Below are positions 1 through 16,528 of a stretch of 64,000 nucleotides of DNA, piece by piece. Under the pieces are notes generated by a model. That model was not told the DNA's origin. It did not search any database and was given only the letters and a program-made list of their open reading frames with translations. Position numbers and translations under genes: made by a program. This DNA comes from Nonomuraea angiospora (GTDB lineage Bacteria; Actinomycetota; Actinomycetes; Streptosporangiales; Streptosporangiaceae). The stretch spans positions 5,332,001 through 5,396,000 of the forward strand of contig NZ_JADBEK010000001.1 of assembly GCF_014873145.1 (NCBI RefSeq), given 5' to 3'. Position 1 is the first letter of the stretch. The number at the start of each line of letters is the position of its first letter.

Positions 1-882
1 GTCCCCGACGTGCCGGTCATCGTCGGAACAACACTGCGCGAACTGCGCTCCGCCGAGCTGTGGTGGCGCGACGGGCACTCGCTCACCCCCGCCGAACTGC
101 ACTTCGGCCAGGTGATGCGCGACGCGTTCGGCACCACGGAGACGCACACCGTGGCCAGCGCGTGCGCCGCCGCTCTGTACGCCCTGGGCATGGCCACCGA
201 CCTGATCGCGCTCGGCCTCGCCGACACCGTCGTGGTCGCGGGCACCGACGCCATCACCGAGAGCTCCTTCGGGGGACTCGACCGCGTGCAGAACCCGCCG
301 CCGCAGGCCATACAGCCGTTCGCGAGGCACCGTCACGGCATGGTCATGGGGGAGGGCGCCGCCGCGGTCGTCGTACGAGCCTCTGGCGCCCATCCCCGCC
401 CCGCACACGCCCGTGTCCGCGGGGTCGCGATGAACTGTGACGCGGCGCATGCGACCGTACCCGACGTCGCGGGCGTCGCCGGCGCCGTCCGCGACGCCCA
501 CCGCCGTGCCGGAGTCGACGCCGCCGACATCGACCTGGTCGTGGTGCACGGCAGCGGCACACGCCACAACGACGCGGTGGAGGCCGGCGTACTGCGCGAC
601 GTCTTCGGGGGCGTCCGGCCCGGCCCGCTGGTCACCTCGGTGAAGTCCGGCCTGGGCCACACCTGCGGGGGATCCGGTCTGATGAGCCTGATCATCGCCG
701 TACTGGCCATGCGGACCGGGGAACTGCCGCCGATACCCGGGCTGAGCGACCCCTCCCCCGAGGCTGGGGACCTGCGCCTCGTCGCCGGCCACCCGGCCCG
801 TGGCCGCTTCGACACAGCGCAGATCAACGCCATCGGCCTCGGCGGCATCAACGCCGTCGCCGTCATCGGCGGGGCCGCATGA
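1..882 (+). CDS. beta-ketoacyl synthase (KS), first active-type KS of a type II system; 5' end outside the window
   Basis: C-terminal three-quarters of a condensing enzyme; the frame is open to base 1, so the start lies upstream. The nucleophile elbow reads VASACAAAL with Cys at nt 163-165. VHGSGTRHND carries the first catalytic His, and SVKSGLGHTCGGSG carries the conserved Lys and second His, so all catalytic residues of a decarboxylating KS are present. It would condense malonyl-ACP units on the ACP encoded at 4187. The stop overlaps the next gene by 4 bp (ATGA), and that gene encodes a degenerate KS, the usual KS/chain-length-factor arrangement of type II PKSs. A FabF of primary metabolism is less likely given the neighbours. 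Confidence 0.9.
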   Translation, partial: VPDVPVIVGTTLRELRSAELWWRDGHSLTPAELHFGQVMRDAFGTTETHTVASACAAALYALGMATDLIALGLADTVVVAGTDAITESSFGGLDRVQNPPPQAIQPFARHRHGMVMGEGAAAVVVRASGAHPRPAHARVRGVAMNCDAAHATVPDVAGVAGAVRDAHRRAGVDAADIDLVVVHGSGTRHNDAVEAGVLRDVFGGVRPGPLVTSVKSGLGHTCGGSGLMSLIIAVLAMRTGELPPIPGLSDPSPEAGDLRLVAGHPARGRFDTAQINAIGLGGINAVAVIGGAA

Positions 883-1949
883 CACGCGCCGTGATCACCG
901 GCTGCGCGCTCGCCGTCACCGGCGTCGCCGACGAATACGACCTCCTCGGCCTCGGCACCGCCGCCGCACCCGAGGACGACGCCGCCCGCGCCGAAATCGG
1001 GCTGCGGCACAAGGACCGCGCGTCCCGGCTCGCCCTCCGTGCCACACGACGGGCGTTGCGCGGCGTCACGCTGCCCGCGTCGGGCACCGCCGTCATCGTC
1101 AGCAGCAACCTCGGGAACCTCGACACCGTCTGCGAGTTCGTCGACATCATCGGCAAGGAGACCGTCACCGGCCTCAGCCCCATGCGCGTGCCGCACATGT
1201 CCAGCAACGTCACCGCGAGCTGGATCGCCCTCGACCACGGCCTGCGCGGACCCAATATCACCCTGTGCAGCGGCACCACCAGCGGCCTGGACGCGATCTT
1301 CTGGGCCACCGCCCTGCTCGCCGCGGGCCGCGCCGAAGTCGCCGTCGTCGTCGGCGTCGAACCGGACACCGCGCCGGTCGCCAGGCTGCACGGCGGCACA
1401 GCACGACTGGACGGCGCCGTGTGCCTCATCCTCGAGACACCCGCGCGGGCCCGCGCCCGCGGCGCCCGGCCGCGCGCCGAAATCCACGCCTACGGCAGAG
1501 CCGCCGACCGCGCCGAGGCCGTTCACCGCGCGACCCGCACGTGGCGGGGCCCCATCGGACTGCGGCTCGCCGGGGGGCCGGGTATCGGTATCGCGGCCGA
1601 CGCGGTCGATCTCCCCGCGGGTCCGGGAAATACCGGCCACGCGGCCATCACCGTCGATCTCACCGCCCGGCTCGGCCGCTGCTCCGGCGCGCTCGGTGTC
1701 CTGCAGTGCGCCGCCGCCCTCCCCTGGCTCGACCGGCCCGGCCACGACGCCGTGCTCGCGGTCGCCGGCGACGACGGCACCGGCGACCAACCCGACGGGG
1801 AAGGCGATCCGAGCGCGGTGGCCGCCGTGCTGCTCACCCGGCCTGCCGAGAACGTGCCCACTCGGCCCGCTGACGGCCTGCTCGCCCGGCCCGCTGACGA
1901 CGTCACGTACGGGAACGGCTTCGGAGGTGATCGGCATGATGATGCCTGA
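879..1949 (+). CDS. degenerate ketosynthase (chain-length-factor-like partner)
   Basis: 356-aa thiolase-fold protein of the KS family that has lost catalysis. At the nucleophile position the motif is LCSGTTSGLDA, where active KSs have xCTSGLDA, so the aligned Cys is Thr. The HGTGT and GHTxGASG histidine motifs of the C-terminal half are not recognisable. The sequence is otherwise KS-like (ATALLAAGRAEVAVVVG, a domain-1 core strand and helix). Such partners form heterodimers with an active KS and set chain length; by position its partner is the KS that ends at 882, which it overlaps by 4 bp. The C-terminal about 40 residues contain a short near-repeat (TRPADGLLARPADD). Pairing is inferred from gene order. 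Confidence 0.8.
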   Translation: MTRAVITGCALAVTGVADEYDLLGLGTAAAPEDDAARAEIGLRHKDRASRLALRATRRALRGVTLPASGTAVIVSSNLGNLDTVCEFVDIIGKETVTGLSPMRVPHMSSNVTASWIALDHGLRGPNITLCSGTTSGLDAIFWATALLAAGRAEVAVVVGVEPDTAPVARLHGGTARLDGAVCLILETPARARARGARPRAEIHAYGRAADRAEAVHRATRTWRGPIGLRLAGGPGIGIAADAVDLPAGPGNTGHAAITVDLTARLGRCSGALGVLQCAAALPWLDRPGHDAVLAVAGDDGTGDQPDGEGDPSAVAAVLLTRPAENVPTRPADGLLARPADDVTYGNGFGGDRHDDA

Positions 1950-3135
1950 TCGGCGTCGTGCGGTGCTGACCGGGCTGGGTGCCGTCTCCTGCCTGGGCGC
2001 GGGCGCTGAGGCTCACTGGGCCGGTCTGCTTGCGGGTGGAGCGGCGCCCCGCGAGGTCGATCTGCCGTACATGCACATGCGGGCCAGGCGTATGTACCTG
2101 ACACCGCCTTCCGCGATCCCCGCCGGCCCCGGCACCCACGCCGGAATCCCGCTCGGACCGGCCCCGCGTATGGCGGTCGCGGCCGCACGTGAAGCACTCG
2201 CGGACGCCGGCATCGGCCGCGGCGACACCGTACGCATCCCCGTCGTGATGGGCGTCGAGATGGGCAACGCGAGCGTTCAGGAAGAGCAGCGCGGCGCGGG
2301 CGGCACCCCGCCGTGGACCCCCCTCGCGGTCACCGCCGCGGTCGTCGCCGAAGCGGTCGGCTCGCGGGCGGGCACCGCCGGCTTGGGCAACGCCTGCGCC
2401 GCGGGCGGCTACACGCTCGGCGTCGCGCTGGACGTCATCCGTGCCGGCGAGGCCGACGTGGTGCTCGTCGGCGGCGCGGAGGGCATCACCCGGGTCGGCA
2501 TGGCCGGGTTCGACCGGATCCGGGTGACCGATCCGTACGGCTGCCGGCCGTTCGCCCGCGACCGGGCGGGCACCGTGTTCGCCGACGGCGCCGCGTTCGC
2601 GGTCCTCGAATCCGCCGCCCACGCCGCATCGCGGGGAGCCCGGCCGTACGCGGAGCTCGGCGCCGCCGCCTGGAGCTGCGACGCCTACCACCACCCCACC
2701 GCCCCGGAGCCCGACGCCGTGCAACTGGTCCGGGCCATGCGGAACGCGCTCGCCGACGCCGGAGTCCGGCCGGAGCAGGTGGGCTGTGTGCTGCCGCACG
2801 CGACCGGCACCCCCGTCAACGACGCGGTGGAAAGCCGGGCACTACGGCGCGTTTTCGGCGATTCCTCCGGCCGTCCACCGGTGTTCGCGCTCAAGGCGCT
2901 CATCGGCCACACCTCGGGGGCCGCGGGCATGTTCGCGTGCCTGACCGCGGCGCTCATCGCCTCCCGGGCCACGATCCCGGCCAACGCGCCCCTGGACCAG
3001 GACCCGGAGTGCGACGTGTGGCTGCCGCAGGACGGGCCCGTACCGCTGAACCGGCCGGCCGTGCTCGTCAACTCGTGCGCGACCGGCGGAGTCAACGCCT
3101 CGTTCGTGCTCTCGCGTGTGGGAGACCCGGCATGA
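1936..3135 (+). CDS. beta-ketoacyl synthase, second active-type KS
   Basis: 399-aa FabF-like condensing enzyme. The start is chosen at the first of three consecutive ATGs because a perfect Shine-Dalgarno, GGAGGTGAT at 1923-1931, lies just upstream inside the preceding gene. The N-terminus (RRAVLTGLGAVSCLG) is the canonical KS beginning. Catalytic residues are present: Cys in GNACAAGGYTLG, His in PHATGTPVND, and Lys/His in ALKALIGHTSGAAG. The C-terminus NSCATGGVNASFVL is the usual KS glycine-rich end. It overlaps the next gene, a degenerate KS, by 4 bp, giving a second KS/partner pair in the same operon. Confidence 0.92.
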   Translation: MMMPDRRRAVLTGLGAVSCLGAGAEAHWAGLLAGGAAPREVDLPYMHMRARRMYLTPPSAIPAGPGTHAGIPLGPAPRMAVAAAREALADAGIGRGDTVRIPVVMGVEMGNASVQEEQRGAGGTPPWTPLAVTAAVVAEAVGSRAGTAGLGNACAAGGYTLGVALDVIRAGEADVVLVGGAEGITRVGMAGFDRIRVTDPYGCRPFARDRAGTVFADGAAFAVLESAAHAASRGARPYAELGAAAWSCDAYHHPTAPEPDAVQLVRAMRNALADAGVRPEQVGCVLPHATGTPVNDAVESRALRRVFGDSSGRPPVFALKALIGHTSGAAGMFACLTAALIASRATIPANAPLDQDPECDVWLPQDGPVPLNRPAVLVNSCATGGVNASFVLSRVGDPA

Positions 3136-4115
3136 ACGCCCCGGTCCGCGTACGCGTCCTCGGCCTCGGGATGATCGCCCCCGGCGCCCTCCGGCCGGCC
3201 CGCGCCCTCGAACCTCCCGTGGAACCGTTTCCCGACTGGTTCGACACCGAGGCGCTGCTCCCCGGCCGCGGCTACCGGAAACTGCCACCGGCCTGCCGGT
3301 ACTTGCTCGCTGCGGCCCGCTCGGCACTCGACGACACCGGTACGTGGTTCGCCGGCCTCTCACCACGGGACCGGGCGGCCGTGATCGGCGGCAACAACGC
3401 GGGAGCCGCGCTCCAGGACGACTTCGACCGTACCGTCATCGCCACGGGGGCGGCGGATCTGTCCCCGGCCCGCGTACCGTACATGGCGCTGAGCATGTTC
3501 GGCGGCCGGCTGGCCCCGGAACACGGGCTGCAGGCATTGGTCCTGACCACCAACTCCCCGGCGGTCGCCGGACTGGAGGCCGTGCAGACGGCGGCGCGCG
3601 CACTGGCCGCCGGGCGTGCCACGGCTGTGCTCGCGGGCGCCGTCGAAGACCGGCCCACGCCCGTCCAAGGCGGTGGGCCCGCGCACGACCTCGGCGCCGC
3701 CGTGCTCGTGTGCGTACAGGAAGGTGTTCCGGTCGCCGGAGAACGGGCGTACGGCCACTGCTCCGTGCGCGGCGCGTTCGTCGGCGCGGCGGGCGGGGTG
3801 CCCGAGACCTCCGACGTACTCGACCCGCTGTGGGAGGAACTCCTCGCCGACGGCCGGCCGGTCGCGCGCATCGACGCCGTGCTCGACGACTCGCCCGCGG
3901 GAGCGGCGGTCGCCGGGTGGCTGACCGCACGCGCGGGCCACCGCGCCGTCACCATCCTCACCCGGCCGCCGGGCAGCGGATCCCTCGCACCGCTGCGCCG
4001 CGTGGTCGGCCGGATGGCGGCCGGTACGGCCGAGCGAGCCCTGGTGCTCGCCGGGTCCGCGCACGGCCACGTCTCGATCGCCGACGTGCTCCCCGGCACG
4101 GCGGGCGTTCCGTGA
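3132..4115 (+). CDS. degenerate ketosynthase-like protein (second chain-length-factor-like partner)
   Basis: 327 aa, shorter than a typical KS (about 410). It keeps the fold signature around LTTNSPAVAGLEAVQ, but the position of the active Cys is Ala and the catalytic His/Lys motifs are missing from the shortened C-terminal half. The start ATG at 3132 is coupled to the stop of the active KS (ATGA). By analogy with aromatic and reducing type II PKSs it should dimerise with the KS at 1936-3135. It could instead be a structural or substrate-gating subunit. About 70 bp separate it from the ACP gene. Confidence 0.7.
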   Translation: MNAPVRVRVLGLGMIAPGALRPARALEPPVEPFPDWFDTEALLPGRGYRKLPPACRYLLAAARSALDDTGTWFAGLSPRDRAAVIGGNNAGAALQDDFDRTVIATGAADLSPARVPYMALSMFGGRLAPEHGLQALVLTTNSPAVAGLEAVQTAARALAAGRATAVLAGAVEDRPTPVQGGGPAHDLGAAVLVCVQEGVPVAGERAYGHCSVRGAFVGAAGGVPETSDVLDPLWEELLADGRPVARIDAVLDDSPAGAAVAGWLTARAGHRAVTILTRPPGSGSLAPLRRVVGRMAAGTAERALVLAGSAHGHVSIADVLPGTAGVP

Positions 4116-4186
4116 CGGTACGCCCGCCGGCCGAACCCTTACACCGCCACCGAACAGGCATCACCGACCCAGAAAGGCAGGACCCC

Positions 4187-4438
4187 ATGGCCACCCTGAT
4201 CCCCACCCGCGACGAGCTGCGCGACTTCTTCGCCGAAGAGCTCGAACTCCCGGCCGACGTCGTCGGCTACGAGAGCGACTTCGAGGCCGACCTCGGCGTC
4301 GACTCGCTTGCCACCATGGAGATCCTCGTGCAGTTGGAGAAGAAGTACGGCATCCGTCTGGAGGAGTCCGAGTTCGCCGGTCTCACCTCCGTGAACGCCG
4401 TCCACGCCTTCCTCGCCGACCGGCTCGAAGCGGCGTGA
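4187..4438 (+). CDS. acyl carrier protein
   Basis: 83-aa acidic carrier protein. The phosphopantetheine attachment Ser lies in LGVDSLATMEILVQLE (DSL motif), the helix-II signature of type II ACPs. The length and fold are those of a stand-alone ACP. It sits in the middle of the operon, after the four KS-family genes and before the ketoreductase, and is the obvious tether for the growing chain. A purine-rich AGAAAGGCAGG precedes the ATG. It is the only carrier protein in the window, so both KS pairs presumably share it unless another lies upstream of the left edge. Confidence 0.95.
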   Translation: MATLIPTRDELRDFFAEELELPADVVGYESDFEADLGVDSLATMEILVQLEKKYGIRLEESEFAGLTSVNAVHAFLADRLEAA

Positions 4439-5187
4439 GCATGACGGGCGCCCACCGCCCGGTCGCCATCGTGACCGGGGGATCACGTGGCATCGGCCGC
4501 GCTGTCGTGACCCGCCTGGCCGCCGAGGGGTTCGACGTCGCGTTCTGCTACCGCACCCGTAAGGACGCCGCGGAGGAGGTGGCGGCCGAGGCCGGGGCGA
4601 CGGGTGCCCGTGTGCTCGCGTACGAGGCCGACGTCGCGTCCGCCGACCAGGCCCGGGCGCTGGTCGCGGCCGCCGAAGAGCACCTCGGGCCGCTGTCGGT
4701 GCTCGTCACCTGCGCCGGCATCGTCCGGGACCGGCCGCTGGCACGCATGACCGACGCCGAATGGGACGATGTGATCCAGACCAACCTGTACGGCACGTAC
4801 CACGTCTGTCGTGCCGCCGCGCTCCCGCTCATGCGGCATGGCAGCGGCTCGATCGTCACGCTGTCCTCGGTCGCGGCCGCGCACGGCGGCCCGGCACAGA
4901 GCAACTACTCCGCGTCCAAGGCCGGCATCGTGGGCTTCACCACGTCCTTGGCGCGCGAACTCGCCCGGTCCGGGGTGCGTGCGAACGTCGTCGCGCCCGG
5001 GCTGATCACCACCGACATCACCAACGATCTGCCGCCCAAGGTGCAGGCGTCCATCATCGGGAAGATCCCGCTGCGCCGGCCCGGGACTCCCGGCGAGGTC
5101 GCCGATCTGGTCGCCTTCCTGGTCTCCGACCGCGCCCGCTACATCACCGGGCAGGTCATCGGCGTCGATGGAGGGCTGGTGCCGTGA
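4435..5187 (+). CDS. 3-oxoacyl-ACP reductase (FabG-like SDR ketoreductase)
   Basis: Classical short-chain dehydrogenase of about 250 aa. The NADP-binding glycine motif is GGSRGIGR near the N-terminus. The catalytic Ser lies in TLSSVAAAHGG, and Tyr and Lys in SNYSASKAG. The C-terminus (YITGQVIGVDGGLVP) is the FabG ending. It would reduce the beta-keto group on the ACP-bound chain. The GTG at 4435 overlaps the ACP stop (GTGA), matching the coupling style of the operon; the ATG at 4441 is the alternative start. No dehydratase or enoyl reductase gene is seen in the window, so the final reduction state of the chain cannot be read from these genes alone. Confidence 0.93.
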   Translation: MSMTGAHRPVAIVTGGSRGIGRAVVTRLAAEGFDVAFCYRTRKDAAEEVAAEAGATGARVLAYEADVASADQARALVAAAEEHLGPLSVLVTCAGIVRDRPLARMTDAEWDDVIQTNLYGTYHVCRAAALPLMRHGSGSIVTLSSVAAAHGGPAQSNYSASKAGIVGFTTSLARELARSGVRANVVAPGLITTDITNDLPPKVQASIIGKIPLRRPGTPGEVADLVAFLVSDRARYITGQVIGVDGGLVP

Positions 5188-6437
5188 CCGCATCCGCCAC
5201 CGGCCGTCCGGGCTCCGGCTCCAGCTCCGGTTCCGGCGCCGGCGCCGGCGCCGGCTATGACGTGATCGTCGTGGGTGCCCGCTGCGGCGGAGCGCCCGCG
5301 GCGATGTTGCTGGCCCGCGCGGGCTACCGCGTCCTCATCCTGGACCGCGCTCGCTTCCCCCGCGACACCCTGTCCACCCTGTACATCCACCAACCCGGCA
5401 CCGCCCTGCTCGACCGCTGGGGGCTGCTCGACCAGGTCGCCGCCACCGGCTGCCCGCCGATCACCTCGGCCATGCACCGTATGGGCCAAGTCGCCGTCGA
5501 AGGCGCTCCCACTCCGGTTCACGGCATCCACGCGGCCTACGCGCCACGGCGTTACCTCCTCGACACCCTCCTCGCCAAGGCCGCGACCGACGCCGGTGCG
5601 GAGTTCCGCGAGGGCTGCCGGGTCACCGACGTGGTCGTCGAGGACGGGCGGGCCGTCGGGGTGCGATGGCGTACCGCCTCCGGCAGCGGCACCGACCGCG
5701 CCGCGCTGGTCGTCGGCGCGGACGGTATGCGCTCGGTCGTGGCGGACGCCGTACGTGCCGGGACGGTCCGCGAACACCCGCCGCTGACCTGCGTCTACTA
5801 CGGCTACTGGGAAGGCGTGCCGGTCACCCGGTTCGAGGCCCACGCGGTACGCGGCCGCTGGGTCGGCTGCCTGCCCACCAACGACGGCCGTACCCTGCTC
5901 GCGGTGTACTTCCCCCAGGCCGAGTTCGAGGCCGTCCGTCGCGACCTGCCCGACGCCTACCTGGGCGGACTCGCGGCCGCGGCCCCGGAACTGTACGAAC
6001 GTGCCCTCGCCGGCACCCGGGTCGGCCCGCTCCGCGGCACCGGCACACAGCGGAACTTCTTCCGCCGCGCGGCCGGACCCGGATGGGCGCTGGTCGGCGA
6101 CGCGGGACACCACAAGGACTCCATCACCGCCGACGGCATCACCGCGGCGTTCCAGCAGGCGGCGCTCCTGGCCGCCCGCCTGGGCGCCGACCTGCCCGAC
6201 CCGGCGCGCCGGCAGGCCGCGTTGGAGCGCTATGCCCTCGACCGCGACCGCATGCTCGCCGCCCGCTACTCCGACACCCTCGCGCTCGCCCGGCTCCGCG
6301 CCGACCGTGTGGAGGCCCGGATCGCCGGGCTCGCGCACGACCCGGCGTGGGTGCAGGCGTTCTTCGACCGCGCGGCGGGCACCGGCCCCGACCTCGTGCC
6401 CGTGCCCGGTAACCGGTCTGAGGAGGTGCCGGCGTGA
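5184..6437 (+). CDS. FAD-dependent oxidoreductase (geranylgeranyl-reductase/halogenase-like superfamily)
   Basis: 417 aa. After a low-complexity Ser/Gly/Ala linker of about 25 residues comes the dinucleotide-binding motif VVGARCGGAPAAMLLARAG with an acidic-Arg end (LILDRARFPRD). About residue 310 the second FAD motif reads GDAGHHKDSITADGIT. This places it in the large monooxygenase-type flavoprotein superfamily that includes geranylgeranyl reductases and FAD-dependent halogenases. I do not see the WxWxIP motif of tryptophan halogenases. The GTG start overlaps the ketoreductase stop (GTGA). In context it probably oxidises, desaturates or epoxidises the ACP-bound chain or the released product; the exact reaction is not inferable. 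Confidence 0.8.
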   Translation: MTASATGRPGSGSSSGSGAGAGAGYDVIVVGARCGGAPAAMLLARAGYRVLILDRARFPRDTLSTLYIHQPGTALLDRWGLLDQVAATGCPPITSAMHRMGQVAVEGAPTPVHGIHAAYAPRRYLLDTLLAKAATDAGAEFREGCRVTDVVVEDGRAVGVRWRTASGSGTDRAALVVGADGMRSVVADAVRAGTVREHPPLTCVYYGYWEGVPVTRFEAHAVRGRWVGCLPTNDGRTLLAVYFPQAEFEAVRRDLPDAYLGGLAAAAPELYERALAGTRVGPLRGTGTQRNFFRRAAGPGWALVGDAGHHKDSITADGITAAFQQAALLAARLGADLPDPARRQAALERYALDRDRMLAARYSDTLALARLRADRVEARIAGLAHDPAWVQAFFDRAAGTGPDLVPVPGNRSEEVPA

Positions 6438-7336
6438 TCACCGAACAGTACGGAATCGCCTTTCCCGGACAGGGCATCAAGGCGCAGACGCTGCTCTCCG
6501 CCCTGCGGGCCCACGTCCGGCACCCGCTGGTCGCCCGGCTGCTGACGACGTTCGGCGCGGCGGATCCCGAGGCGCTGGACCTCGGTGACACCTCGGTCGT
6601 CCAGCCCGCCACCTTCGCCGCCGGCCTCGCGGCGGCCGACACGGCCTTCGGGCCGGACCACTGCCCGCCGGTGGCGCTCGGCCACAGCCTGGGCGAGCTG
6701 ACCGCCGCGGCGTACGCCGGATTCCTCCGTATCGACGAGGGCTTCGAACTGGCCGTGGACCGCGGCCGGTTGTGCCACGACCAGAGCCTGCGCAGGCCCG
6801 GGGCGATGGTCGCGATCGTCGGCGCCGACGCGGGCGAACTCGAATGGCTGCGCCGGAGCGTGGTCGCCGAGCACGGCGAGATCCTCGACGTCGCCGGGCT
6901 CAACAGCGCCCGGCAGACCGTACTGTCGGGCGCTCCCGAGGCGGTGGCCGCGGCCGTACGCATCGCCGGGGAACAGTGCCTGCGCGCCGAAGTGCTGCCG
7001 ATACCCGGCGGTTTCCACAGCCCGCTGATGATGGACGCCGTCCCGGCGTGGCGGCGCCGTCTGGAGTCCGCGGACTTCCGCCCGAGTACGACCCGATTCG
7101 TCTCCGCGATCGACGTACGACCGCACACCGACCCGGTCCAGGTCCGCGAACAACTCGCGCGCGGCCTGGTGCTCCCGGTGCGCTGGCACGAGGCCGTGCG
7201 TACGGTACGAGACCTCGGCGTGCCCGGCCTCGTCGACGCCGGACCGGGTACGACCCTGCTCAAGCTCGGACGCCGCGCCCGCATCCTCGAGTTCACCGGC
7301 CTCGGCGCGCTGCCCGAACCGGTTCCACCCGGGTGA
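6434..7336 (+). CDS. acyltransferase (FabD-like malonyl-CoA:ACP transacylase family)
   Basis: 300-aa acyltransferase. It has the start signature IAFPGQG, the nucleophile elbow GHSLGE with the catalytic Ser, and the catalytic His in GGFHSPLM; the C-terminal VDAGPGTTL is also typical. A perfect AGGAGGT lies at 6421-6427 before the GTG start, which overlaps the oxidoreductase stop. A dedicated AT inside a type II PKS operon suggests an extender or starter unit that the housekeeping FabD does not handle, or simply a local malonyl supply. The residues that set malonyl versus other specificity cannot be judged reliably by eye. Confidence 0.9.
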   Translation: MITEQYGIAFPGQGIKAQTLLSALRAHVRHPLVARLLTTFGAADPEALDLGDTSVVQPATFAAGLAAADTAFGPDHCPPVALGHSLGELTAAAYAGFLRIDEGFELAVDRGRLCHDQSLRRPGAMVAIVGADAGELEWLRRSVVAEHGEILDVAGLNSARQTVLSGAPEAVAAAVRIAGEQCLRAEVLPIPGGFHSPLMMDAVPAWRRRLESADFRPSTTRFVSAIDVRPHTDPVQVREQLARGLVLPVRWHEAVRTVRDLGVPGLVDAGPGTTLLKLGRRARILEFTGLGALPEPVPPG

Positions 7337-7418
7337 GGGCGGCCCGCTGAGCACCGCCGTTCGACCACGTGACCCACAAGCGGACCAGCCCCGCCCGCCG
7401 CGCGACCGGAAGGCGCCC

Positions 7419-8633
7419 ATGCACCACCCCGATCCCACCACGGACGCCGTGCTCGACCCCGGCATCGTCCCCGACGGCACCGCATCCGCCGCCGGACCGG
7501 CCCGCCACGTGCTGCTCACCGGCGCCACCGGCTTCCTCGGCGCGTTCCTGCTCCGCGAACTCCTCGACCGCGCCGACGCCGACGTGTGGTGCCTGGTGCG
7601 CGCCGACAGCGACCACCACGCGGCGTCCCGCCTGCGCGAGGCCATGCGGCGCTATCTGATCTGGGACGACCGGTCGGCCGGGCGCGTCATCCCGGTCGCC
7701 GGAGACCTGACCGCGCCCGACCTCGGCCTGACGCCCGCCCGCTGGGCGGAACTCGCCGAGCGGATTGACGCCGTGCAGCACGCCGGCGCCCAGGTCGGCC
7801 ATGCCGCACCGTACGCCGCGCTGCGGGCGGCCAACGTGTACGGCACCCAGGAGATCATCCGGCTGGCCTGCGAGCGCCGCGGCAAGCCGCTCAGCTTCAT
7901 CTCCACCGCCGCCGTACCGGGTGATCCGGCGGACCGTACCGCGGCACCTCCTCCGCCCGGGCGCCCGGGCGGAGGCTATGTCACCGGCAAATGGGTCGCC
8001 GAGCGCCTGGTCCGGCAGGCCGGCGACCGCGGGCTGCCGGTACGGATCCACCGCCCCGGCCGCATCAGCGGCCACTCCGTCACCGGAGCCTGCCAACTCG
8101 ACGACGGAATATGGCACTTCGTACGAGCCATCGCCCTGCTCGGCCTGGCCCCCGTCGTCGCGGCGCCCGACGGCGGCGGCCCCGCGGTGTCGTTCTCGCC
8201 GGTCGACTACGTCGCCCGCGCCATCGTCCACATGTCCGCGCAGGACACTGGACCCGCCCCGCTGCGCTACCTGGTCAACCATTCCCGCATGCCGCTGAGC
8301 GACCTGATCGGCCACGTGGCCAAGCGGTACGCCGTCTCCTACGTCTCGCGCGACACATGGCTCGAACGCCTGTGGCAGGCACGGCACCGGTACGACGGCG
8401 CGCTGCTCAAGGCCGGCGTCCTGGTGAAGTACTACCGGGCGCTGCTCACGGGAACCGGCCGCCCGCCGACCGCCGACGACCGGGACACCGTACGGGACCT
8501 GGCCGGAACCGGCATCACCTGCCCACCCCTGGACGGCGCCCTCATCGGGGTGTATCTCGACTACTTCCAATCAGCGGGTTTCCTCCCGGTACCGCCGACA
8601 CACCTGAACCGGGAATCGCCAGCCCGAGGCTGA
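7419..8633 (+). CDS. thioester-reductase-like NAD(P)-dependent enzyme (extended SDR, NAD_binding_4 type)
   Basis: 404 aa. After about 27 residues comes the Rossmann motif VLLTGATGFLGAFLL. The middle carries STAAVPGD and GGGYVTGKWVAERLV, supplying the Ser and the Tyr-x-x-x-Lys of extended SDRs. The closest family is the thioester reductase domain of NRPS/carboxylic acid reductases and fatty acyl-CoA reductases, here free-standing. It would release the finished acyl-ACP reductively as an aldehyde or alcohol, and it is the only release enzyme in the operon: no thioesterase, cyclase or aromatase is present. It is separated from the AT gene by about 80 bp and ends the operon. Confidence 0.8.
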   Translation: MHHPDPTTDAVLDPGIVPDGTASAAGPARHVLLTGATGFLGAFLLRELLDRADADVWCLVRADSDHHAASRLREAMRRYLIWDDRSAGRVIPVAGDLTAPDLGLTPARWAELAERIDAVQHAGAQVGHAAPYAALRAANVYGTQEIIRLACERRGKPLSFISTAAVPGDPADRTAAPPPPGRPGGGYVTGKWVAERLVRQAGDRGLPVRIHRPGRISGHSVTGACQLDDGIWHFVRAIALLGLAPVVAAPDGGGPAVSFSPVDYVARAIVHMSAQDTGPAPLRYLVNHSRMPLSDLIGHVAKRYAVSYVSRDTWLERLWQARHRYDGALLKAGVLVKYYRALLTGTGRPPTADDRDTVRDLAGTGITCPPLDGALIGVYLDYFQSAGFLPVPPTHLNRESPARG

Positions 8634-9585: not shown

Positions 9586-9624
9586 GTGTCGACGCCGATC
9601 CGAATCGCCTCACATGATGGACGC

Positions 9625-10251
9625 ATGAGCCAAGAATCGAAACTTCCTCTGTTCAACCAGCGGATGAGACGCGAGCTTTACGAGCAGCGTGTTCTCGTTC
9701 TCGACGGCCCTCTCGACGACGACAACGGGACACTGCTGGCCACGCAACTGATGGCACTCGCCACCCAGGACGCGTCGGCCGATATCGCATTGTGGATTCA
9801 CTCCCCGGGCGGCTCGGTCCCCTCGATGCTGGCGATTCGCGACATCATTCGCCTCATTCCCTGTGACGTATCGACCCTCGTGCTGGGCATCGCTTACAGC
9901 GCCGGGCAGTTCCTGCTTTCGTCGGGGGCCCGAGGCAAGCGCCGCGCCCTGCCGCACGCACGCGTCCTGATGCACCAGGGCTCGGCGGGAATCGGTGGCA
10001 CCGCGGTCGACATCGAACTGCAGGCCGGCGACCTCCGGCATACTCGCGACACGGTGCTCGGTCTTATCGCCGAGGACACGGGCCAGCCCGTCGAGCGCAT
10101 ATTCGAGGATTCTCTGCACGATCGTTGGTACACAGCGCAAGAGGCGCTCGACTACGGTTTCATAGATGCGATCGTGCAGACCTTCGACGAAGTCGCGCCT
10201 CACAATCGCCCGCGGCCCGGATTCGGCATCACCGAAGGAGTCGGCAAGTGA
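9625..10251 (+). CDS. clpP: ATP-dependent Clp protease proteolytic subunit (active type)
   Basis: 208 aa, normal ClpP length. The nucleophile Ser is in GIAYSAGQFLLSSGARGKR (canonical AASMG region, here AYSAG). The catalytic His is in ARVLMHQGSAG and the Asp lies near HDRWYTAQEALDYGFID. The N-terminal SPGGSVPSMLAI loop is standard. It forms a tetradecameric protease chamber served by Clp ATPases in the cytoplasm. The start at 9625 is chosen because the family N-terminus begins there; no strong Shine-Dalgarno is visible. It is coupled (GTGA) to a second clpP. Streptomycetes carry an accessory clpP3-clpP4 operon controlled by PopR, and this pair with its neighbouring regulator matches that arrangement. 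Confidence 0.95.
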   Translation: MSQESKLPLFNQRMRRELYEQRVLVLDGPLDDDNGTLLATQLMALATQDASADIALWIHSPGGSVPSMLAIRDIIRLIPCDVSTLVLGIAYSAGQFLLSSGARGKRRALPHARVLMHQGSAGIGGTAVDIELQAGDLRHTRDTVLGLIAEDTGQPVERIFEDSLHDRWYTAQEALDYGFIDAIVQTFDEVAPHNRPRPGFGITEGVGK

Positions 10252-10838
10252 CCACATATACGATACCGAACGTCATCGCGCAGAATCCTCGCGGCGAGCG
10301 GATCATGGATGTCTACTCGCACCTGCTCACCGAGCGAATCGTTTATCTGGGCACCGCGATCGACGCGGGCGTCGCCAACGCGCTCATCGCGCAGCTGATT
10401 TTTCTGGAGTCGGACAACCCCGATGCCGAAATACAGTTCTATATCAACTGCGAAGGTGGTGACCCGAGTGCGATGCTCGCGATATACGACACCATGCGCC
10501 ATATCCGCCCGCGGGTTTCGACAACCTGCGTCGGACAAGCCGTCGCGGTCGGTGCCGTCCTTCTCGCCGCGGGTGCCGAGGGAAAACGTGCCGCACTCCC
10601 CCACGCACGCGTGATCCTGCACCAACCAGCCGCTCAGGGGCGCGGAACGATCCCCGACCTCATCTTGCAGGCCGACGAGGTTGTACGAGTCCGGGCAGAC
10701 ATCGAGCGCATCCTGTCACGGCACACCGGCCAGACGATCGAGACCCTACGCGCCGACACCGATCACGATCGCGTGTTCACCGCGACCGCGGCCTTGGAGT
10801 ACGGGCTCCTCGATCAGATCATCGAGGAGCACTCATAG
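10248..10838 (+). CDS. clpP: ClpP paralogue lacking the catalytic serine
   Basis: 196 aa, GTG start overlapping the previous stop by 4 bp. The ClpP fold is well conserved (YINCEGGDPSAMLAIYD, HARVILHQP with the His, ATAALEYGLLDQII), but the nucleophile motif reads GQAVAVGAVLLAAG where active ClpPs have GQAASMGA: the Ser codon is GCG (Ala). On family knowledge this subunit cannot cleave by the usual mechanism. It is likely a structural ring partner of the upstream ClpP, as with inactive ClpP/ClpR subunits in plastids and cyanobacteria, altering chamber composition or chaperone docking. A sequencing error is unlikely because neighbouring residues (Val-Ala-Val) also differ from consensus. Confidence 0.9.
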   Translation: MTTYTIPNVIAQNPRGERIMDVYSHLLTERIVYLGTAIDAGVANALIAQLIFLESDNPDAEIQFYINCEGGDPSAMLAIYDTMRHIRPRVSTTCVGQAVAVGAVLLAAGAEGKRAALPHARVILHQPAAQGRGTIPDLILQADEVVRVRADIERILSRHTGQTIETLRADTDHDRVFTATAALEYGLLDQIIEEHS

Positions 10839-10858
10839 GCCCGAGAACAACCCCGGCA

Positions 10859-10873
10859 GGCCGCTAAGCGGCC
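10859..10873. terminator. short palindrome between convergent clpP and regulator genes
   Basis: GGCCGCTAAGCGGCC is a perfect 7-bp stem around one base, overlapping the stop codon of the minus-strand regulator and lying 20 bp after the clpP stop. It lacks a T-run, so a bidirectional terminator role is only a possibility; it may partly reflect the Ala-Ala codons. Confidence 0.3.
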
Positions 10874-11250
10874 AGAGCATAAGCCGCCGAGCAGACAGCA
10901 CCCCTCGACCCGCTGGGCTGAGCAGACCGCAAACTCTCTGCGACAGCAAGAGTCAGATCGATCAGGGTCACATCCAGCGCGCCGGCGACCGCGGCGATCA
11001 TTTCACTCGACGGCTCTTTGACGCCTCGTTCCATCTCGGAGAGATATTGCGGCGAGACTCCGGCGCGAGCCGCCGTCTCACTCAACTTCTCGCCCCGCTG
11101 TTGACGAAGGCCCCTCAGACACTCACCGAGCACCTGCCGCCACAGCGGCTCGCGCGCCGGAGAGGGCTTGAGGGCGGTCCGATCGATCGCTGGACGTAGC
11201 GGCGAGATGGAAGATGGCTGCGGGATGGAGGAGGCCATACTCCACACCAT
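10864..11250 (-). CDS. XRE-family transcriptional regulator of the ClgR/PopR type, ending in YALAA
   Basis: 128 aa. The helix-turn-helix covers about residues 40-95 (WRQVLGECLRGLRQQRG; LSETAARAGVSPQYLSEMER; EPSSEMIAAVAGALDV), the pattern of ClgR/PopR regulators that activate clp genes. The last residues are SAAYALAA; YALAA is exactly the end of the actinobacterial tmRNA (ssrA) tag, a ClpXP/ClpAP degron. PopR of S. lividans is known to be degraded by ClpP through C-terminal alanines, so a feedback loop is likely: the regulator accumulates when Clp capacity is low and switches on the adjacent clpP pair. It is convergent with the clpP operon. The ATG at 11235 is an alternative start. Confidence 0.88.
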   Translation of the reverse strand: MVWSMASSIPQPSSISPLRPAIDRTALKPSPAREPLWRQVLGECLRGLRQQRGEKLSETAARAGVSPQYLSEMERGVKEPSSEMIAAVAGALDVTLIDLTLAVAESLRSAQPSGSRGAVCSAAYALAA

Positions 11251-12577: not shown

Positions 12578-13083
12578 CAGTACCAGTTGACGCTCCTTGC
12601 GGTTGCGTAGTTCGATGTTTCGTGCCGCCCCAGCACCTTTTGCGTGTCAGGCGGCGCCAGGTCCTGACGGCGTGTGACGGGGCGAGCGAGCACGCACCGA
12701 GCACGGCGGGCACCCTAATTGGTCTCATCACCCCTACCGCGTTCATCGACATGGTCGGCGCGTCCCTTGCCCGCCGGACGTGCTACGAACATCACTCTCT
12801 CACTACCAACCGGACAACAGCGTTCGCATTCTCGACATCAGCATGCGGCACCAAGAGCTGCCTGATCACAACCCCACCACAAGAGCGACGGATGAACGGT
12901 GACCCGGTGCAGTGAAACAGGACCGGAACCCCACCGACAGCGCGGCCTGGCAGCTGCTGCGCCAGGCGGTCACCGATCACAGTGAGCTACAGAACGAGTG
13001 GCGACAGTCACCGAATCGGCCCCAGCCCGCGAGATCTTCTGCTAATCGTCTGGTATTGGCCGGTGAGCGGTGGAGAGACAACG
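12578..13083. other. intergenic region with an attachment-site-like repeat and no firm gene
   Basis: A short plus-strand reading from a GTG at 12912 (KQDRNPTDSAAWQLLRQA) may be a remnant but runs out of frame with everything nearby. The copy of the 34-bp repeat at 12674-12707 is the notable element. A GGAGA precedes the hydrogenase-related operon at about 13072. Confidence 0.4.
12674..12707. repeat. 34-bp repeat, copy 1 (second copy at 56838-56871)
   Basis: It starts GTGACGGGGCG and ends CACGCACCGAGCACGGC. It differs from the copy at 56838-56871 at only two adjacent positions, in the same orientation. The second copy lies next to a tRNA-Arg 3' fragment and a dead integrase, so the repeat is probably attachment-site flank DNA of related integrative elements. 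Confidence 0.6.
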
Positions 13084-13566
13084 ATGAGGTTGTGGCGGAA
13101 GATCGCGAAAACGGGCCGGGTGGCCGAACCCGCGCCACGGCGCGACGGCGGTGAGCCGTCGGCGAAGGCGGCGGAGCTGGCCGGATCGGTGCAGATCAGG
13201 CATGTGGACGCGGGTTCGTGCAACGGGTGTGAGGTGGAGATCGCCTCGGCGTTCGGCCCGGTCTACGACGCCGAGCGATACGGCGCACGGCTGGTGGCTT
13301 CGCCGCGGCACGCGGACGCCCTCCTCGTGACCGGGCCGGTGACCCGCAACATGGAGGTGGCGCTGCGCCGCACCCATGACGCGGTTGCTGAGCCGCGGCT
13401 GGTGATCGCGCTGGGTGACTGCGCACGCGACTGCGGAGCGTTCGCCGGGGCCTATGGGGTGGCCGGGGCGGTGAGCGACGTGGTGCCGGTGGATGTGGAG
13501 GTGCCGGGGTGCCCGCCGGAGCCTGAGGCGATCGTGGCGGCGTTGCGGGGGCTGACCGGGCGATGA
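13084..13566 (+). CDS. hyfI: NuoB/HycG-like [4Fe-4S] small subunit of a hydrogenase-4/complex-I related complex
   Basis: 160 aa. The cluster ligands are visible: GSCNGCEVEI, then ALGDCARDCGAF, then VPGCPPEPEAI, the NuoB/HycG pattern for the proximal (N2-type) cluster. The start ATG at 13084 has GGAGAGAC upstream; longer readings from 12912 or 12982 lack family similarity. It overlaps the next gene by 4 bp and opens a six-gene run encoding a membrane-bound complex. In M. tuberculosis the same order is found in Rv0082-Rv0087. The subunit would pass electrons to or from the large subunit at 18642. Confidence 0.88.
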   Translation: MRLWRKIAKTGRVAEPAPRRDGGEPSAKAAELAGSVQIRHVDAGSCNGCEVEIASAFGPVYDAERYGARLVASPRHADALLVTGPVTRNMEVALRRTHDAVAEPRLVIALGDCARDCGAFAGAYGVAGAVSDVVPVDVEVPGCPPEPEAIVAALRGLTGR

Positions 13567-15584
13567 ACGTGGTCGGCACACTGTTCACGGTGGCGCTGTC
13601 CTGCTGCGCGGTGGCCGCTCTGGCCGCCTTGGTGGCGCCGCCGCGGGCGCGGCTGCATCTGGCGGGCTGGTGCACGGCGGCCGCGGGGGCCGCAGGAGCG
13701 GCGGCGGGTGTGGCGGCCGTTGTGGTTGCCGGCGCCGGTCAGCTCTGGTCGGCCTGGCTGCCGGAGCTGCTGCCGCTGGCCGGGGTGCGGCTGGCCCTCG
13801 ACCCGCTGGGCGGGGTGTTCGTCGCGATCACCGGGGTGGTGACGGTGTGCGCGGCGATCTACGGGATCGGCTACTGCGCTCACGGCCTGGACGGGCGAGT
13901 GTTCCAGGCCGTGCTGCCGCTGTTCGTGGCGGCCATGCTGGTGGTGCCGGCCGCGGCCAGCGTGAGCACGTTCCTGCTGGCCTGGGAGCTGATGGCCACC
14001 TCATCGCTGGTGCTGCTGCTGGCCGAGCACCGGCGGCGGGCGGCGGTGGGGCGGGCCGGGTTGTGGTACGCGGTCATGACCCACCTCGGCCTGGTGACGA
14101 TCCTGGCCGGGTTGGTCACGTTCGCCGCCGGGGCCGGTGGGGAGAGCTTCGAGCAGTTGCGCGCCGCCACGCTGCCACCGGCCGCCAAGACGGTGGCGTT
14201 CCTGGCGACGTTCGCCGGGTTCGCCTCCAAGGCCGGCATCGTTCCGCTGCATGTGTGGCTGCCGCGCGCGTACCCGGAAGCGCCGAGTCACGTGTCGGCG
14301 CTGATGAGCGCGGCGATGGTGAACATGGGTGCCTACGGCGTCGTCCGGGTCGGGCTGGATCTGCTGCACGTCGGCCCGGCCTGGTGGTGGCTGCTGGTGC
14401 TGGCGGCGGGCGCGGCGTCGGCGCTGTTCGGAATCTTGCAGGCGATCGTGACCTCGGATCTGAAGCGGCTGCTGGCCTACTCCTCGACGGAGAACCTGGG
14501 CCTGGTGCTGGTCGGGGTGGGCGCGGCGGGATTCTTCGCCGCGTCACACCTGTCCGTGGTGGCGGCATTGGCGCTGGCCGCGGCGCTGCTGCATGTGGTC
14601 AACCATGCCGCGTTCAAGACGGTGTTGTTCCTGTCGGCGGGCTCGGTGCTGCACGCCACGGGCACCCGCGACCTGGACGCGCTGGGCGGGCTGCGCACTC
14701 GGATGCCGTACACCACTGTCGTGTTCGCCGTCGGGGCGTTGTGTGCCTCGGCGCTGCCGCCCGGCAACGCTTTCGTCAGCGAGTGGCTGCTGTTGCAGAG
14801 CCTGATCCACGCCGTACCCGGTGCCGGGGTGGTGGGTGTGGTGACGATGCCGCTGGCCGTAGGGGTGATCGCGCTGTCGGCAGGGCTGGCGGTGGCCACC
14901 TTCGTCAAGGCGTTCGGCGTGGGCTTTCTGGCCCGGCCCCGCAGCGCGCAGGCCGAGCGGGCGAGCGAGAGCCCACTGGCCATGCTCGGTGCGACGGCGC
15001 TCGCCGCATCGGGCTGCGCGGCCCTGGCGCTGACGCCCACGCTGGTCGTACCCGCGCTCGGCGGGGCTGTCGGCGTGGTGTTCCCGGGACGGGAGGTGGT
15101 GAGCGGGGAGCTGGCGCTGAGGCTGGCGGGCGTCTCGGGGGTGATCTCGCCGCTGCTGATCGCCCTCGCCCTCATGGCAGCTGTCGTCGCGGTACTGGGT
15201 CTGGTACGGGTGATGGCGGCGCGGCGGGCCCGGCGAGCCGCCCGGCTGTGGGACTGCGGCGCCGGGCCGATGTCGGCCCGGATGGAGTACACCGCGACGT
15301 CGTTCGCCGAGCCGTTGCAGCGGGTCTTCGACAACGTGCTGGCCCCCGAAAGCGATGTGGCCGTCACCCCGGTGAAGGAGTCGGCCTACTTGGTGGAACG
15401 CGTGCGCTTTCAGGCGCGGGTGCCGGACCGGATCGAGCACCGGCTCTACGATCCGCTGATCGCCGCCGTGACTGTGCTCGGGCTCGGTGCCCGCAAGCTC
15501 GCGACCGGCAGCGTGCACCGCTATCTCGGCTACGGGTTCTGGGCGCTGACCGGAGCGCTGATCGTCCTGGTGGTGCTGTGGTGA
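13563..15584 (+). CDS. hyfB: HyfB/NuoL-like proton-translocating antiporter subunit
   Basis: 673-aa polytopic protein (about 14 or more hydrophobic segments) of the Mrp/NuoL/HyfB family. Signature stretches include LAWELMATSSLVLL (conserved Glu in TM5), GIVPLHVWLPRAYPEAPSH, AMVNMGAYGVVRV, and the broken-helix region LLAYSSTENLG with a Lys in SDLKRLL. A C-terminal cytosolic/TM tail follows. It would couple redox chemistry to H+ or Na+ movement across the membrane. ATG overlaps the small-subunit stop (ATGA). Confidence 0.92.
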   Translation: MNVVGTLFTVALSCCAVAALAALVAPPRARLHLAGWCTAAAGAAGAAAGVAAVVVAGAGQLWSAWLPELLPLAGVRLALDPLGGVFVAITGVVTVCAAIYGIGYCAHGLDGRVFQAVLPLFVAAMLVVPAAASVSTFLLAWELMATSSLVLLLAEHRRRAAVGRAGLWYAVMTHLGLVTILAGLVTFAAGAGGESFEQLRAATLPPAAKTVAFLATFAGFASKAGIVPLHVWLPRAYPEAPSHVSALMSAAMVNMGAYGVVRVGLDLLHVGPAWWWLLVLAAGAASALFGILQAIVTSDLKRLLAYSSTENLGLVLVGVGAAGFFAASHLSVVAALALAAALLHVVNHAAFKTVLFLSAGSVLHATGTRDLDALGGLRTRMPYTTVVFAVGALCASALPPGNAFVSEWLLLQSLIHAVPGAGVVGVVTMPLAVGVIALSAGLAVATFVKAFGVGFLARPRSAQAERASESPLAMLGATALAASGCAALALTPTLVVPALGGAVGVVFPGREVVSGELALRLAGVSGVISPLLIALALMAAVVAVLGLVRVMAARRARRAARLWDCGAGPMSARMEYTATSFAEPLQRVFDNVLAPESDVAVTPVKESAYLVERVRFQARVPDRIEHRLYDPLIAAVTVLGLGARKLATGSVHRYLGYGFWALTGALIVLVVLW

Positions 15585-16525
15585 TGAGCGTGGTCGGGGC
15601 GACGTTGCAGGTGGTCTTCGTCGGGGTCGGCGCCCCGCTGCTGGTGGGGGTGATGCGGCAGGCCCGCGCCCGGCTTGAGGGACGCGCTGGGGCCGGCATC
15701 CGGCAGCCCTGGCGAGATCTGCGCAAGCTGATGCGCAAACAGGCGATCACGCCGCACGGCACCGGCTGGGTGTTCCGCGCCGCGCCACTGCTGTTGGCCG
15801 GCACCACGCTGGTGGTCGCCGCGGTGGTGCCGCTGGTGACCACGGACTCGCCGCTGGACGGTGTCGCCGACCTGTTCGCGGTGACCGCGCTGCTCGCCTT
15901 GGGGTCGGTGGCGCTGGCACTCGGCGCGCTGGACACCGGCACGGCGTTCGGCGGGATGGGCGCCAGCCGGGAGATGACCGTGCTGGCGCTGGTGGAGCCG
16001 ACGATACTGGTGTCGACCTTCGCGCTGTCGATCAAGGCCGGCTCCACCAGTCTGGGCGCGATCGTCACCGCGACAGCGGACAACCCGCTGTCGGTGATCT
16101 CTCCGGTGAGCGTACTGGCCGCGATCGCCCTGGCGATCGTCACGATCGCCGAGACCGGGCGGATCCCGCTGGACAACCCGTCCACGCATCTGGAACTGAC
16201 GATGATCCATGAGGCGATGGTGCTGGAGTACGCCGGTCCGGACCTGGCGCTGGTCGAGTGGGCCTCAGCCATGCGGTTGTCGGTGCTGCTGGGTCTGCTG
16301 GCCGGCCTGTTCTTCCCGCTGGGGATCGCAGGCGCGGACGCGGGGCCGCTCGCGCTGGCGGTGGCGTCGATCGCGCTCGTGCTGAAGGTGGGGGTGCTGG
16401 GAGTGGTCTTGGCGGTCGGTGAGGTGTTCATGGCCAAGTTGCGATTGTTCCGCGTTCCTGAGCTGCTGGCCGGTTCGTTCCTGTTGGCGCTGCTGGCCGT
16501 GGCCGCTTCCTTCTTCCTGGCGTGA
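15584..16525 (+). CDS. hyfC: HyfC/HycD (NuoH-like) membrane anchor subunit
   Basis: 313 aa with about 8 membrane spans. The conserved NuoH/HycD loop IAETGRIPLDNPSTHLELTM and the downstream IHEAMVLEYAGPDLAL are present, as is GIRQPWRDLRKLMRKQ near the N-terminus. This subunit links the hydrophilic module to the antiporter subunits. The ATG at 15584 overlaps the stop of hyfB by one base (TGATG); GTG at 15581 is the alternative start. Confidence 0.92.
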   Translation: MSVVGATLQVVFVGVGAPLLVGVMRQARARLEGRAGAGIRQPWRDLRKLMRKQAITPHGTGWVFRAAPLLLAGTTLVVAAVVPLVTTDSPLDGVADLFAVTALLALGSVALALGALDTGTAFGGMGASREMTVLALVEPTILVSTFALSIKAGSTSLGAIVTATADNPLSVISPVSVLAAIALAIVTIAETGRIPLDNPSTHLELTMIHEAMVLEYAGPDLALVEWASAMRLSVLLGLLAGLFFPLGIAGADAGPLALAVASIALVLKVGVLGVVLAVGEVFMAKLRLFRVPELLAGSFLLALLAVAASFFLA

Positions 16526-16528
16526 CAT

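What the first reader, a model, noticed from the sequence alone, without database searches (positions are those of the whole stretch)
1..8633. Reducing type II PKS-like operon with two KS/degenerate-KS pairs and a reductive release enzyme
The sequence shows two active-type ketosynthases, each followed and overlapped by a ketosynthase that lost its nucleophile (Cys to Thr, Cys to Ala), then one ACP, a ketoreductase, an FAD oxidoreductase, a dedicated acyltransferase and a free-standing thioester-reductase-like enzyme. No cyclase, aromatase or thioesterase is seen. Known families predict a non-aromatic, reduced chain released as aldehyde or alcohol. The two pairs could build two chain segments or act in relay. 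I do not know a characterised cluster with exactly this set.
Basis: partly seen in the sequence, partly recalled or inferred. Interest (0 to 1): 0.75.

Follow-up and report, generated by a model that had tools for sequence, protein, structure and literature searches.

The report
Orphan reducing polyketide operon, aryl-primed
A soil bacterium carries a compact, uncharacterised set of 14 genes that probably extends an aromatic starter acid by a short reduced carbon chain and releases it as an aldehyde or alcohol; the combination of parts is unusual, but the kind of machinery is known.

Summary
In detail: 1-8633 encodes two active-type ketosynthases (KS1, KS3), each overlapped by a partner that lost its cysteine (Thr in KS2, Ala in KS4), then ACP, ketoreductase, FAD enzyme, acyltransferase and thioester reductase. 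The window cuts KS1 and hides five genes upstream: AraC regulator, PaaZ-like protein, alcohol dehydrogenase, a diazotase-like adenylating enzyme fused to a second ACP (LIG1), and a benzoate-CoA-ligase-like enzyme (LIG2). The same 14 genes occur in Nonomuraea jabiensis, Yinghuangia and Embleya (rearranged in the last two, flanks unrelated), so this is one cluster. [quoted passage not shown] LIG2 loads a probably aromatic acid, two dedicated KS-CLF pairs of separate lineages extend it, the ketoreductase and the MaoC half of the PaaZ-like protein (its aldehyde-dehydrogenase half lost Cys and Glu) reduce and dehydrate, and the reductase releases aldehyde or alcohol. The papers I could search describe no cluster with this set. 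New variant of a known kind. Starter, chain length, LIG1 chemistry and product are not shown.

The parts
1..882 (+). KS1, active-type ketosynthase; the gene starts at -254, before the window. Five further genes of the same operon lie upstream of the window (coordinate x = genome base 5332000+x; L002 position = x+10000): AraC regulator -8023..-7037; PaaZ-like dead-ALDH/MaoC protein -7028..-5049; zinc alcohol dehydrogenase -5039..-3990; LIG1, diazotase-branch adenylating enzyme with C-terminal ACP, -3774 (or -3921)..-1738; LIG2, benzoate-CoA-ligase-like, -1738..-251
   Evidence: KS1: Pfam, Cys-His-His. AraC: NCBIfam, best 70 bits, DNA-binding part. PaaZ-like: Aldedh 111 and MaoC 76 bits, PaaZ model 467 bits, cut-off 563, residues. 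ADH: 136 bits, below cut-off. LIG1: AvaA6 model 361 bits, cut-off 975, PP-binding, start by coding score. LIG2: benz_CoA_lig 315 bits, cut-off 375, PDB 4rlf 234 bits
879..1949 (+). KS2, KS-like partner, nucleophile Cys replaced by Thr
   Evidence: Pfam ketoacyl-synt 46.5 bits
1942..3135 (+). KS3, active-type ketosynthase of a second lineage (start 1942 or 1963)
   Evidence: Pfam; Cys-His-His; trees
3132..4115 (+). KS4, KS-like partner, nucleophile Cys replaced by Ala
   Evidence: Pfam ketoacyl-synt 45.9 bits; model with CLF chains on top, tied with KSs
4187..4438 (+). stand-alone ACP
   Evidence: Pfam PP-binding 55 bits
4435..5187 (+). FabG-type ketoreductase (start 4435 or 4441)
   Evidence: 3oxo_ACP_reduc 285 bits, cut-off 298; SDR motifs in 7 of 7
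5184..6437 (+). FAD-dependent oxidoreductase, role unknown
   Evidence: FAD_binding_3 73 bits; closest solved chain a halogenase, 72 bits
6434..7336 (+). dedicated acyltransferase, proposed malonyl-CoA:ACP transferase
   Evidence: Acyl_transf_1 75 bits; MdcH and FabD models 141 and 124 bits, below cut-offs; GHSLGE in 5 of 5
7419..8633 (+). free-standing thioester reductase, proposed release enzyme
   Evidence: Thioester-redct 303 bits, cut-off 213; motifs in 4 of 4

Best explanation
[quoted passage not shown] Proposed order: LIG2 activates a carboxylic acid, most likely benzoate- or anthranilate-type, and loads it on an ACP, perhaps the one fused to LIG1; AT charges the stand-alone ACP with malonate; KS1-KS2 makes the first condensation; KR reduces and the MaoC half of the PaaZ-like protein dehydrates, giving an arylacrylyl-type chain; KS3-KS4 adds one or more further units with the same KR and dehydratase; the FAD enzyme oxidises or reduces the chain or ring; the thioester reductase releases an aldehyde, which it or the alcohol dehydrogenase may reduce further. 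LIG1 either adenylates a second acid or, like its diazotase relatives, activates nitrite to act on an aryl amine. Shown here: gene content, boundaries, active-site residues, conservation. Inferred: starter, order of the pairs, dehydratase role, release form, product. My odds for the parts (judgement): reducing type II PKS 0.9, reductive release 0.75, aromatic starter 0.65, each pair serving its own round 0.55, LIG1 as diazotase 0.3.
For: KS Cys-His-His and Cys-less partners; LIG2 nearest to benzoate- and anthranilate-CoA ligases and directly before KS1 in 16 of 17 relatives; shikimate-branch genes beside the same genes in L007, L013, L016 and L054; MaoC motif kept and ALDH Cys/Glu lost in 4 of 4 cluster proteins, with both kept in 2 of 2 PaaZ-type controls; thioester reductase over its cut-off with motifs kept in 4 of 4; one gene set in three genera.
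Against: No gene for an aromatic starter in the cluster; no DHQS and no PhzE-type protein in the genome. LIG2 falls below the benzoate-CoA-ligase cut-off. KS1 and KS3 do not join the ishigamide KS in the tree; that KS goes with 9s5h and FabF-type KSs. AvaA4/CmaA4 were not available for comparison. The FAD enzyme's role is open.
Confidence: 0.5

Rival explanations
1. Aliphatic-primed reducing PKS: LIG1 and LIG2 both activate fatty or short acids, the two pairs build a purely aliphatic chain, and the product is a fatty aldehyde or alcohol. Close to the first reader's view.
For: No aromatic-supply genes in the cluster or, for the two routes tested, the genome; LIG1 and LIG2 also match many acyl-CoA ligase models.
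Against: For LIG2 the benzoate-CoA-ligase model leads by 65 bits (315, next 249, also an aryl ligase); for LIG1 the diazotase model leads by 219 bits (361, next 142); shikimate-branch genes beside relatives.
Confidence: 0.25
2. Two separate chains: each KS-CLF pair makes its own acyl chain on its own ACP, and the chains are joined later, as with two-chain polyenes such as colabomycin (recalled).
For: KS1 and KS3 are of separate lineages; two ACPs.
Against: One KR, one AT and one reductase; no joining enzyme (amide synthase, condensation domain) among the families hit.
Confidence: 0.12
3. Ring-forming KS pair of the cispentacin/coronafacic type: one pair elongates once and cyclises to a small non-aromatic ring (KS with cyclization factor, PMC10698177).
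For: AmcF is the best NCBIfam model for KS1 (185 bits) and the third for KS3 (186 bits); KS2 has a weak AmcG hit (31 bits).
Against: All below the cut-offs (325 and 80); no AmcE-like decarboxylase or aminotransferase recognised in the cluster.
Confidence: 0.06

Closest known systems
ava / cma clusters (avenalumic acid; p-coumaric acid), PMC10777205 (parts 1-3 of 4 read)
   Same: Aryl-acid-ACP ligase, two ACPs, KS, CLF, FabG-type KR (ava), and a diazotase-branch ligase in one actinomycete cluster; no cyclase in the published gene table.
   Different: Here two KS-CLF pairs, PaaZ-like/MaoC protein, dedicated AT, FAD enzyme and thioester reductase; LIG1 fused to an ACP; no 3,4-AHBA synthase (DHQS family) in the genome, no nitrosuccinate lyase over the cut-off; release reductive rather than as acid (inferred).
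Ishigamide-type highly reducing type II PKS (Iga11-Iga12, 6kxd)
   Same: KS-CLF; Iga11 is the second-best solved match of KS1 and KS3.
   Different: KS1 and KS3 lie outside the Iga11 group in the tree; adenylating starter ligase and reductive release here.
Cispentacin / coronafacic acid enzymes (AmcF-AmcG), PMC10698177 (parts 1-2 of 8 read)
   Same: Short KS with a Cys-less partner, ACP, adenylating starter ligase.
   Different: KS and partner below AmcF/AmcG cut-offs; KR, AT, MaoC and reductase here.
CreM / AvaA6 / Tri17 nitrite-adenylating enzymes (PMC11705231, passages)
   Same: LIG1 matches the AvaA6 model (361 bits) and Tri17 chains 8tf7/9bq0 (268 bits) over the adenylating domain; core motifs kept.
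   Different: Below the AvaA6 cut-off (975); C-terminal ACP; best solved match is 9xb8 (473 bits), whose function I could not find.
PaaZ (phenylacetate pathway)
   Same: ALDH-MaoC fusion over the whole length (467 bits).
   Different: ALDH Cys and Glu lost; inside a PKS operon; below the cut-off of 563.

Membership tests
Highly reducing type II PKS | KS with catalytic Cys paired with a Cys-less CLF | tested here: met
   KS1 18 of 18 and KS3 8 of 8 with Cys; KS2 0 of 17 and KS4 0 of 7. Heterodimer formation itself not testable here.
Highly reducing type II PKS | discrete ACP and ketoreductase | tested here: met
   PP-binding 55 bits; FabG-type KR 285 bits
Highly reducing type II PKS | dedicated dehydratase | tested here: inconclusive
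   No FabA/FabZ family hit in the cluster; a MaoC domain with intact motif is fused to a dead ALDH; the published cma pathway is proposed to use the FAS dehydratase
Highly reducing type II PKS | KS groups with the ishigamide KS | tested here: not met
   KS1 and KS3 form two separate groups; Iga11 and 9s5h group with three FabF-type KSs, 99/96; one true reference only
ava/cma-type cluster | KS and CLF of the AvaA4/AvaA5 group | not tested
   Their sequences were not obtained
ava/cma-type cluster | 3,4-AHBA synthase genes | tested here: not met
   No DHQS-family (PF01959) match in the own genome
ava/cma-type cluster | nitrous acid (ANS) genes | tested here: inconclusive
   Own genome best 442 bits, cut-off 650; by the paper, about half of such clusters (72 of 134) lack them
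Nitrite-adenylating diazotase (LIG1) | over the AvaA6 family cut-off | tested here: not met
   361 bits, cut-off 975; the model is for one narrow function
Nitrite-adenylating diazotase (LIG1) | forms N-N bonds from nitrite and an amine | not testable with these tools
   Needs an enzyme assay
Cispentacin AmcF/AmcG | over the NCBIfam cut-offs | tested here: not met
   KS1 185 and KS3 186 of 325; KS2 31 of 80; no listed hit for KS4
PaaZ | active aldehyde dehydrogenase half | tested here: not met
   Cys and Glu positions lost in 4 of 4 cluster proteins; kept in 2 of 2 controls
Primary FAS locus | is the genome's FabF/ACP locus | tested here: not met
   ACP directly before a FabF-type KS at G000:C1:4712300-4714400
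Flavin-dependent halogenase (FAD enzyme) | WxWxIP motif (motif recalled) | tested here: not met
   No WxW in the sequence, although a halogenase is the closest solved chain

The most novel reading that the evidence does not exclude
LIG1 is a carrier-tethered diazotase: it adenylates nitrite and forms an N-N bond on an aryl amine while the aryl chain sits on the ACP fused to it. With two successive KS-CLF pairs, a pseudo-ALDH/MaoC dehydratase and reductive release, the cluster would make an N-N-containing or deaminated aryl-alkenyl aldehyde. For: LIG1 lies in the AvaA6/Tri17 branch with motifs kept; a stand-alone relative (55%) sits in L054 with LIG2-KS1-KS2 and genes that look like a 3-hydroxyanthranilate route; Embleya holds such genes in one run with CreE- and CreD-like genes at another locus. 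Against: in the Nonomuraea genome no nitrosuccinate lyase over the cut-off and no PhzE-type protein.
Probability: 0.18. Interest if true: 0.8.

Novelty: new variant of a known kind. Interest (0 to 1): 0.55.

Why it matters
It joins features that I do not know together: two KS-CLF pairs of separate lineages, a diazotase-branch enzyme fused to an ACP, a dehydratase candidate made from a dead aldehyde dehydrogenase, and reductive release. The two KS lineages lie apart from the ishigamide KS and FabF, and the KS1-KS3 combination seems to recur across actinomycetes, so one reconstituted example would help to read many orphan clusters. It would also make testable whether a second KS-CLF pair means a second round or a second chain.

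Tried and rejected
ClpP pair downstream as a self-resistance part: N. jabiensis also has it, about 10 kb beyond its cluster, but no ClpP-like protein was called in the flanks read in Yinghuangia and Embleya; rejected as a cluster member.

Recent transfer of the cluster between the two Nonomuraea genomes: cluster 97% and ClpP region 98% alike, in the same order; ordinary descent with an insertion or deletion between them explains it.

3,4-AHBA as starter: no DHQS in the own genome; 1 of 12 genomes tested has one. 3-hydroxyanthranilate from an own PhzE-type route: absent at E 1e-30. In N. altamirensis, PhzD/PhzE-like genes near the cluster are followed by genes that look to me like phzF and phzG (by eye), probably a phenazine cluster; not counted.

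Tandem duplication of one KS-CLF pair: not supported.

Surveys: in 396 genomes of the phylum, KS3-type hits at 1e-75 in 1 (the own genome) and KS1-type in 3 (own included); only 4 first-look candidates per genome were scored in the rows shown, so these are lower bounds. The AvaA6 model matched at 1e-70 in 5 of 396, own included, none over the cut-off (3 candidates scored per genome in the rows shown).

KS2 model: pLDDT 72.6; matches confirm a KS-type fold, with FabFs ranked first.

Paper searches: (10 of 10), which showed no paper on this gene set. Read: parts 1-2 of 8 of PMC10698177; parts 1-3 of 4 of PMC10777205; passages of PMC11705231, PMC13311259, PMC12664062, PMC10132072. The library holds open papers only; MIBiG and antiSMASH were not available. 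Papers behind 9xb8 and 9s5h were not found.
Full report
What was checked. The window is G000:C1:5332001-5396000 of an unnamed 13.09-Mb genome. Its KS1 is 99% identical to one of Nonomuraea jabiensis and the nearby ClpP region 98%, so it is a close Nonomuraea relative. I fetched 20 kb upstream and called genes. Upstream positions are written as negative window coordinates (x = genome base 5332000+x).

Anatomy. Fourteen genes on + from -8023 to 8633: AraC regulator, PaaZ-like protein, zinc alcohol dehydrogenase, LIG1, LIG2, KS1, KS2, KS3, KS4, ACP, KR, FAD enzyme, AT, thioester reductase (families). Many neighbours overlap by a few bases, so translation is probably coupled.

Boundaries. One 17,237-base alignment at 97% runs from -8323 to 8849 against N. 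jabiensis and stops at both ends of this gene set; the N. jabiensis stretch then held only 1,953 and 2,049 further bases. Yinghuangia seranimata and Embleya hyalina hold the same 14 genes, with AraC-PaaZ-ADH behind the reductase; for the 11 genes from LIG1 to the reductase the best segments are 77-94% and 56-75% identical to ours. Comparing flanks of the four genomes (2-31 kb per piece), no DNA match at 1e-10 and one protein match (an SDR pair, 37%) appeared. Nocardia altamirensis has a related set without the LIG1 adenylating domain and without the reductase in the stretches read (to base 31,000); its contig begins inside the PaaZ-like gene.

Companions of KS1. Of 17 relatives found among 67 matched stretches, 16 have a LIG2 homologue directly upstream (not L017) and 16 have KS2 downstream (L018 ends first). 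Seven carry KS3/KS4; six of these the FAD enzyme; four the AT; three the reductase; four the PaaZ-like protein; five a LIG1 adenylating domain, fused to an ACP in three and alone in two. Absence refers to the stretch held, mostly 10 kb per side. Of the 120 listed KS3 relatives and 120 listed KS1 relatives, 31 longest-contig lengths coincide; I read this as one contig carrying both, and a few could be chance.

Starter. LIG2 is nearest to benzoate- and anthranilate-CoA ligases, below the family cut-off. Beside the same genes in relatives lie DAHP synthase and a PhzE-type enzyme (L007, L016, L054), an isochorismatase and an SDR that looks EntA-like by eye (L054), and a chorismate-binding enzyme (L013). 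Such a set can give an anthranilate-type acid (pathway knowledge, recalled). The other loci listed show none in the parts that I annotated, and our cluster has none; its genome lacks a DHQS and a PhzE-type protein. The starter would then come from general metabolism. I put an aromatic starter at 0.65.

Dehydration. No FabA/FabZ family was hit in the cluster. The PaaZ-like protein has lost the ALDH Cys (GQKCTA to GQTRRA or GQTRAA) and the Glu position in 4 of 4 cluster proteins that cover it; two PaaZ-type controls keep Cys and Glu. The MaoC motif (TGD, then H) is kept in the 6 sequences that cover it, one of them a control. A dead dehydrogenase kept in three genera with a live-looking hydratase half suggests that the protein now serves as dehydratase of the PKS. 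This is inference.

LIG1. Its adenylating domain matches the AvaA6 diazotase model at 361 bits (next model 142; cut-off 975) and Tri17 (8tf7/9bq0, so named in PMC11705231) at 268 bits; the best solved match is 9xb8, 473 bits, function not found. The ACP fusion is in ours, L003, L004 and L005, and not in the seven other homologues aligned. Nitrosuccinate lyase over the cut-off occurs in 6 of 13 genomes, among them Yinghuangia and Embleya on other contigs than the cluster, but not in ours, whose best match (442 bits) sits among genes that look by eye like an aromatic-acid (protocatechuate) pathway. Diazotase activity is open.

Release. The thioester reductase exceeds its family cut-off and keeps its motifs in 4 of 4. 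With no thioesterase hit in the cluster, aldehyde or alcohol release is the simplest reading.

Verdict. [quoted passage not shown] as to membership, grouping with the one ishigamide KS was not met and the dehydratase is open. The papers that I could search do not describe this set, but the library holds open papers only and MIBiG was not available.

Noticed in passing
window 9586-11250: Second ClpP pair (ClpP-family hits for 9664-10251 and 10248-10838), with a small helix-turn-helix-like ORF on - behind it (by eye); N. jabiensis has the pair about 10 kb beyond its cluster.
   Followed up: partly
window 12982-20108: Run of large membrane-protein ORFs that looks like a group 4 hydrogenase/Hyf-type complex (by eye).
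   Followed up: no
L001, window coordinates -15693..-14923 and -10273..-9962: Transposase-like ORF and a transposase remnant-like ORF upstream of the cluster (by eye).
   Followed up: no
L010, L012, L014, L015, L019: Streptomyces loci with LIG2-KS1-KS2 and a shared set upstream (in L012: methyltransferase, uracil-DNA-glycosylase-superfamily protein, weak nucleoside deoxyribosyltransferase hit) and an ACP-thioesterase downstream; product unknown to me.
   Followed up: partly
L008, L011: LIG1/LIG2/KS1/KS2 loci that also carry a ThyX-type protein and an HsaA-like flavin monooxygenase (hits for L008; L011 by similarity).
   Followed up: no
L059 17002 to end and L057 to 7065 (Embleya): One run of DAHP synthase-, EntA-, PhzD-, PhzE-, CreE- and CreD-like genes: an apparent aryl-amine plus nitrite supply cassette away from the 14-gene cluster.
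   Followed up: partly
L053: KS1/KS2/KS3/KS4/ACP quartet in a different cluster with modular PKS- and NRPS-like genes.
   Followed up: no
L061 (Nocardia altamirensis): Phenazine-like gene run (PhzD, PhzE, and by eye PhzF, PhzG) a few kb from the related KS cluster.
   Followed up: partly
L017: Two FabA-like proteins near the KS1-KS4 genes, i.e. a relative with hot-dog dehydratase candidates of its own.
   Followed up: no
G000:C1:5779380-5854021: Very large modular PKS genes (open frames up to 9153 aa) about 0.45 Mb from the cluster.
   Followed up: no
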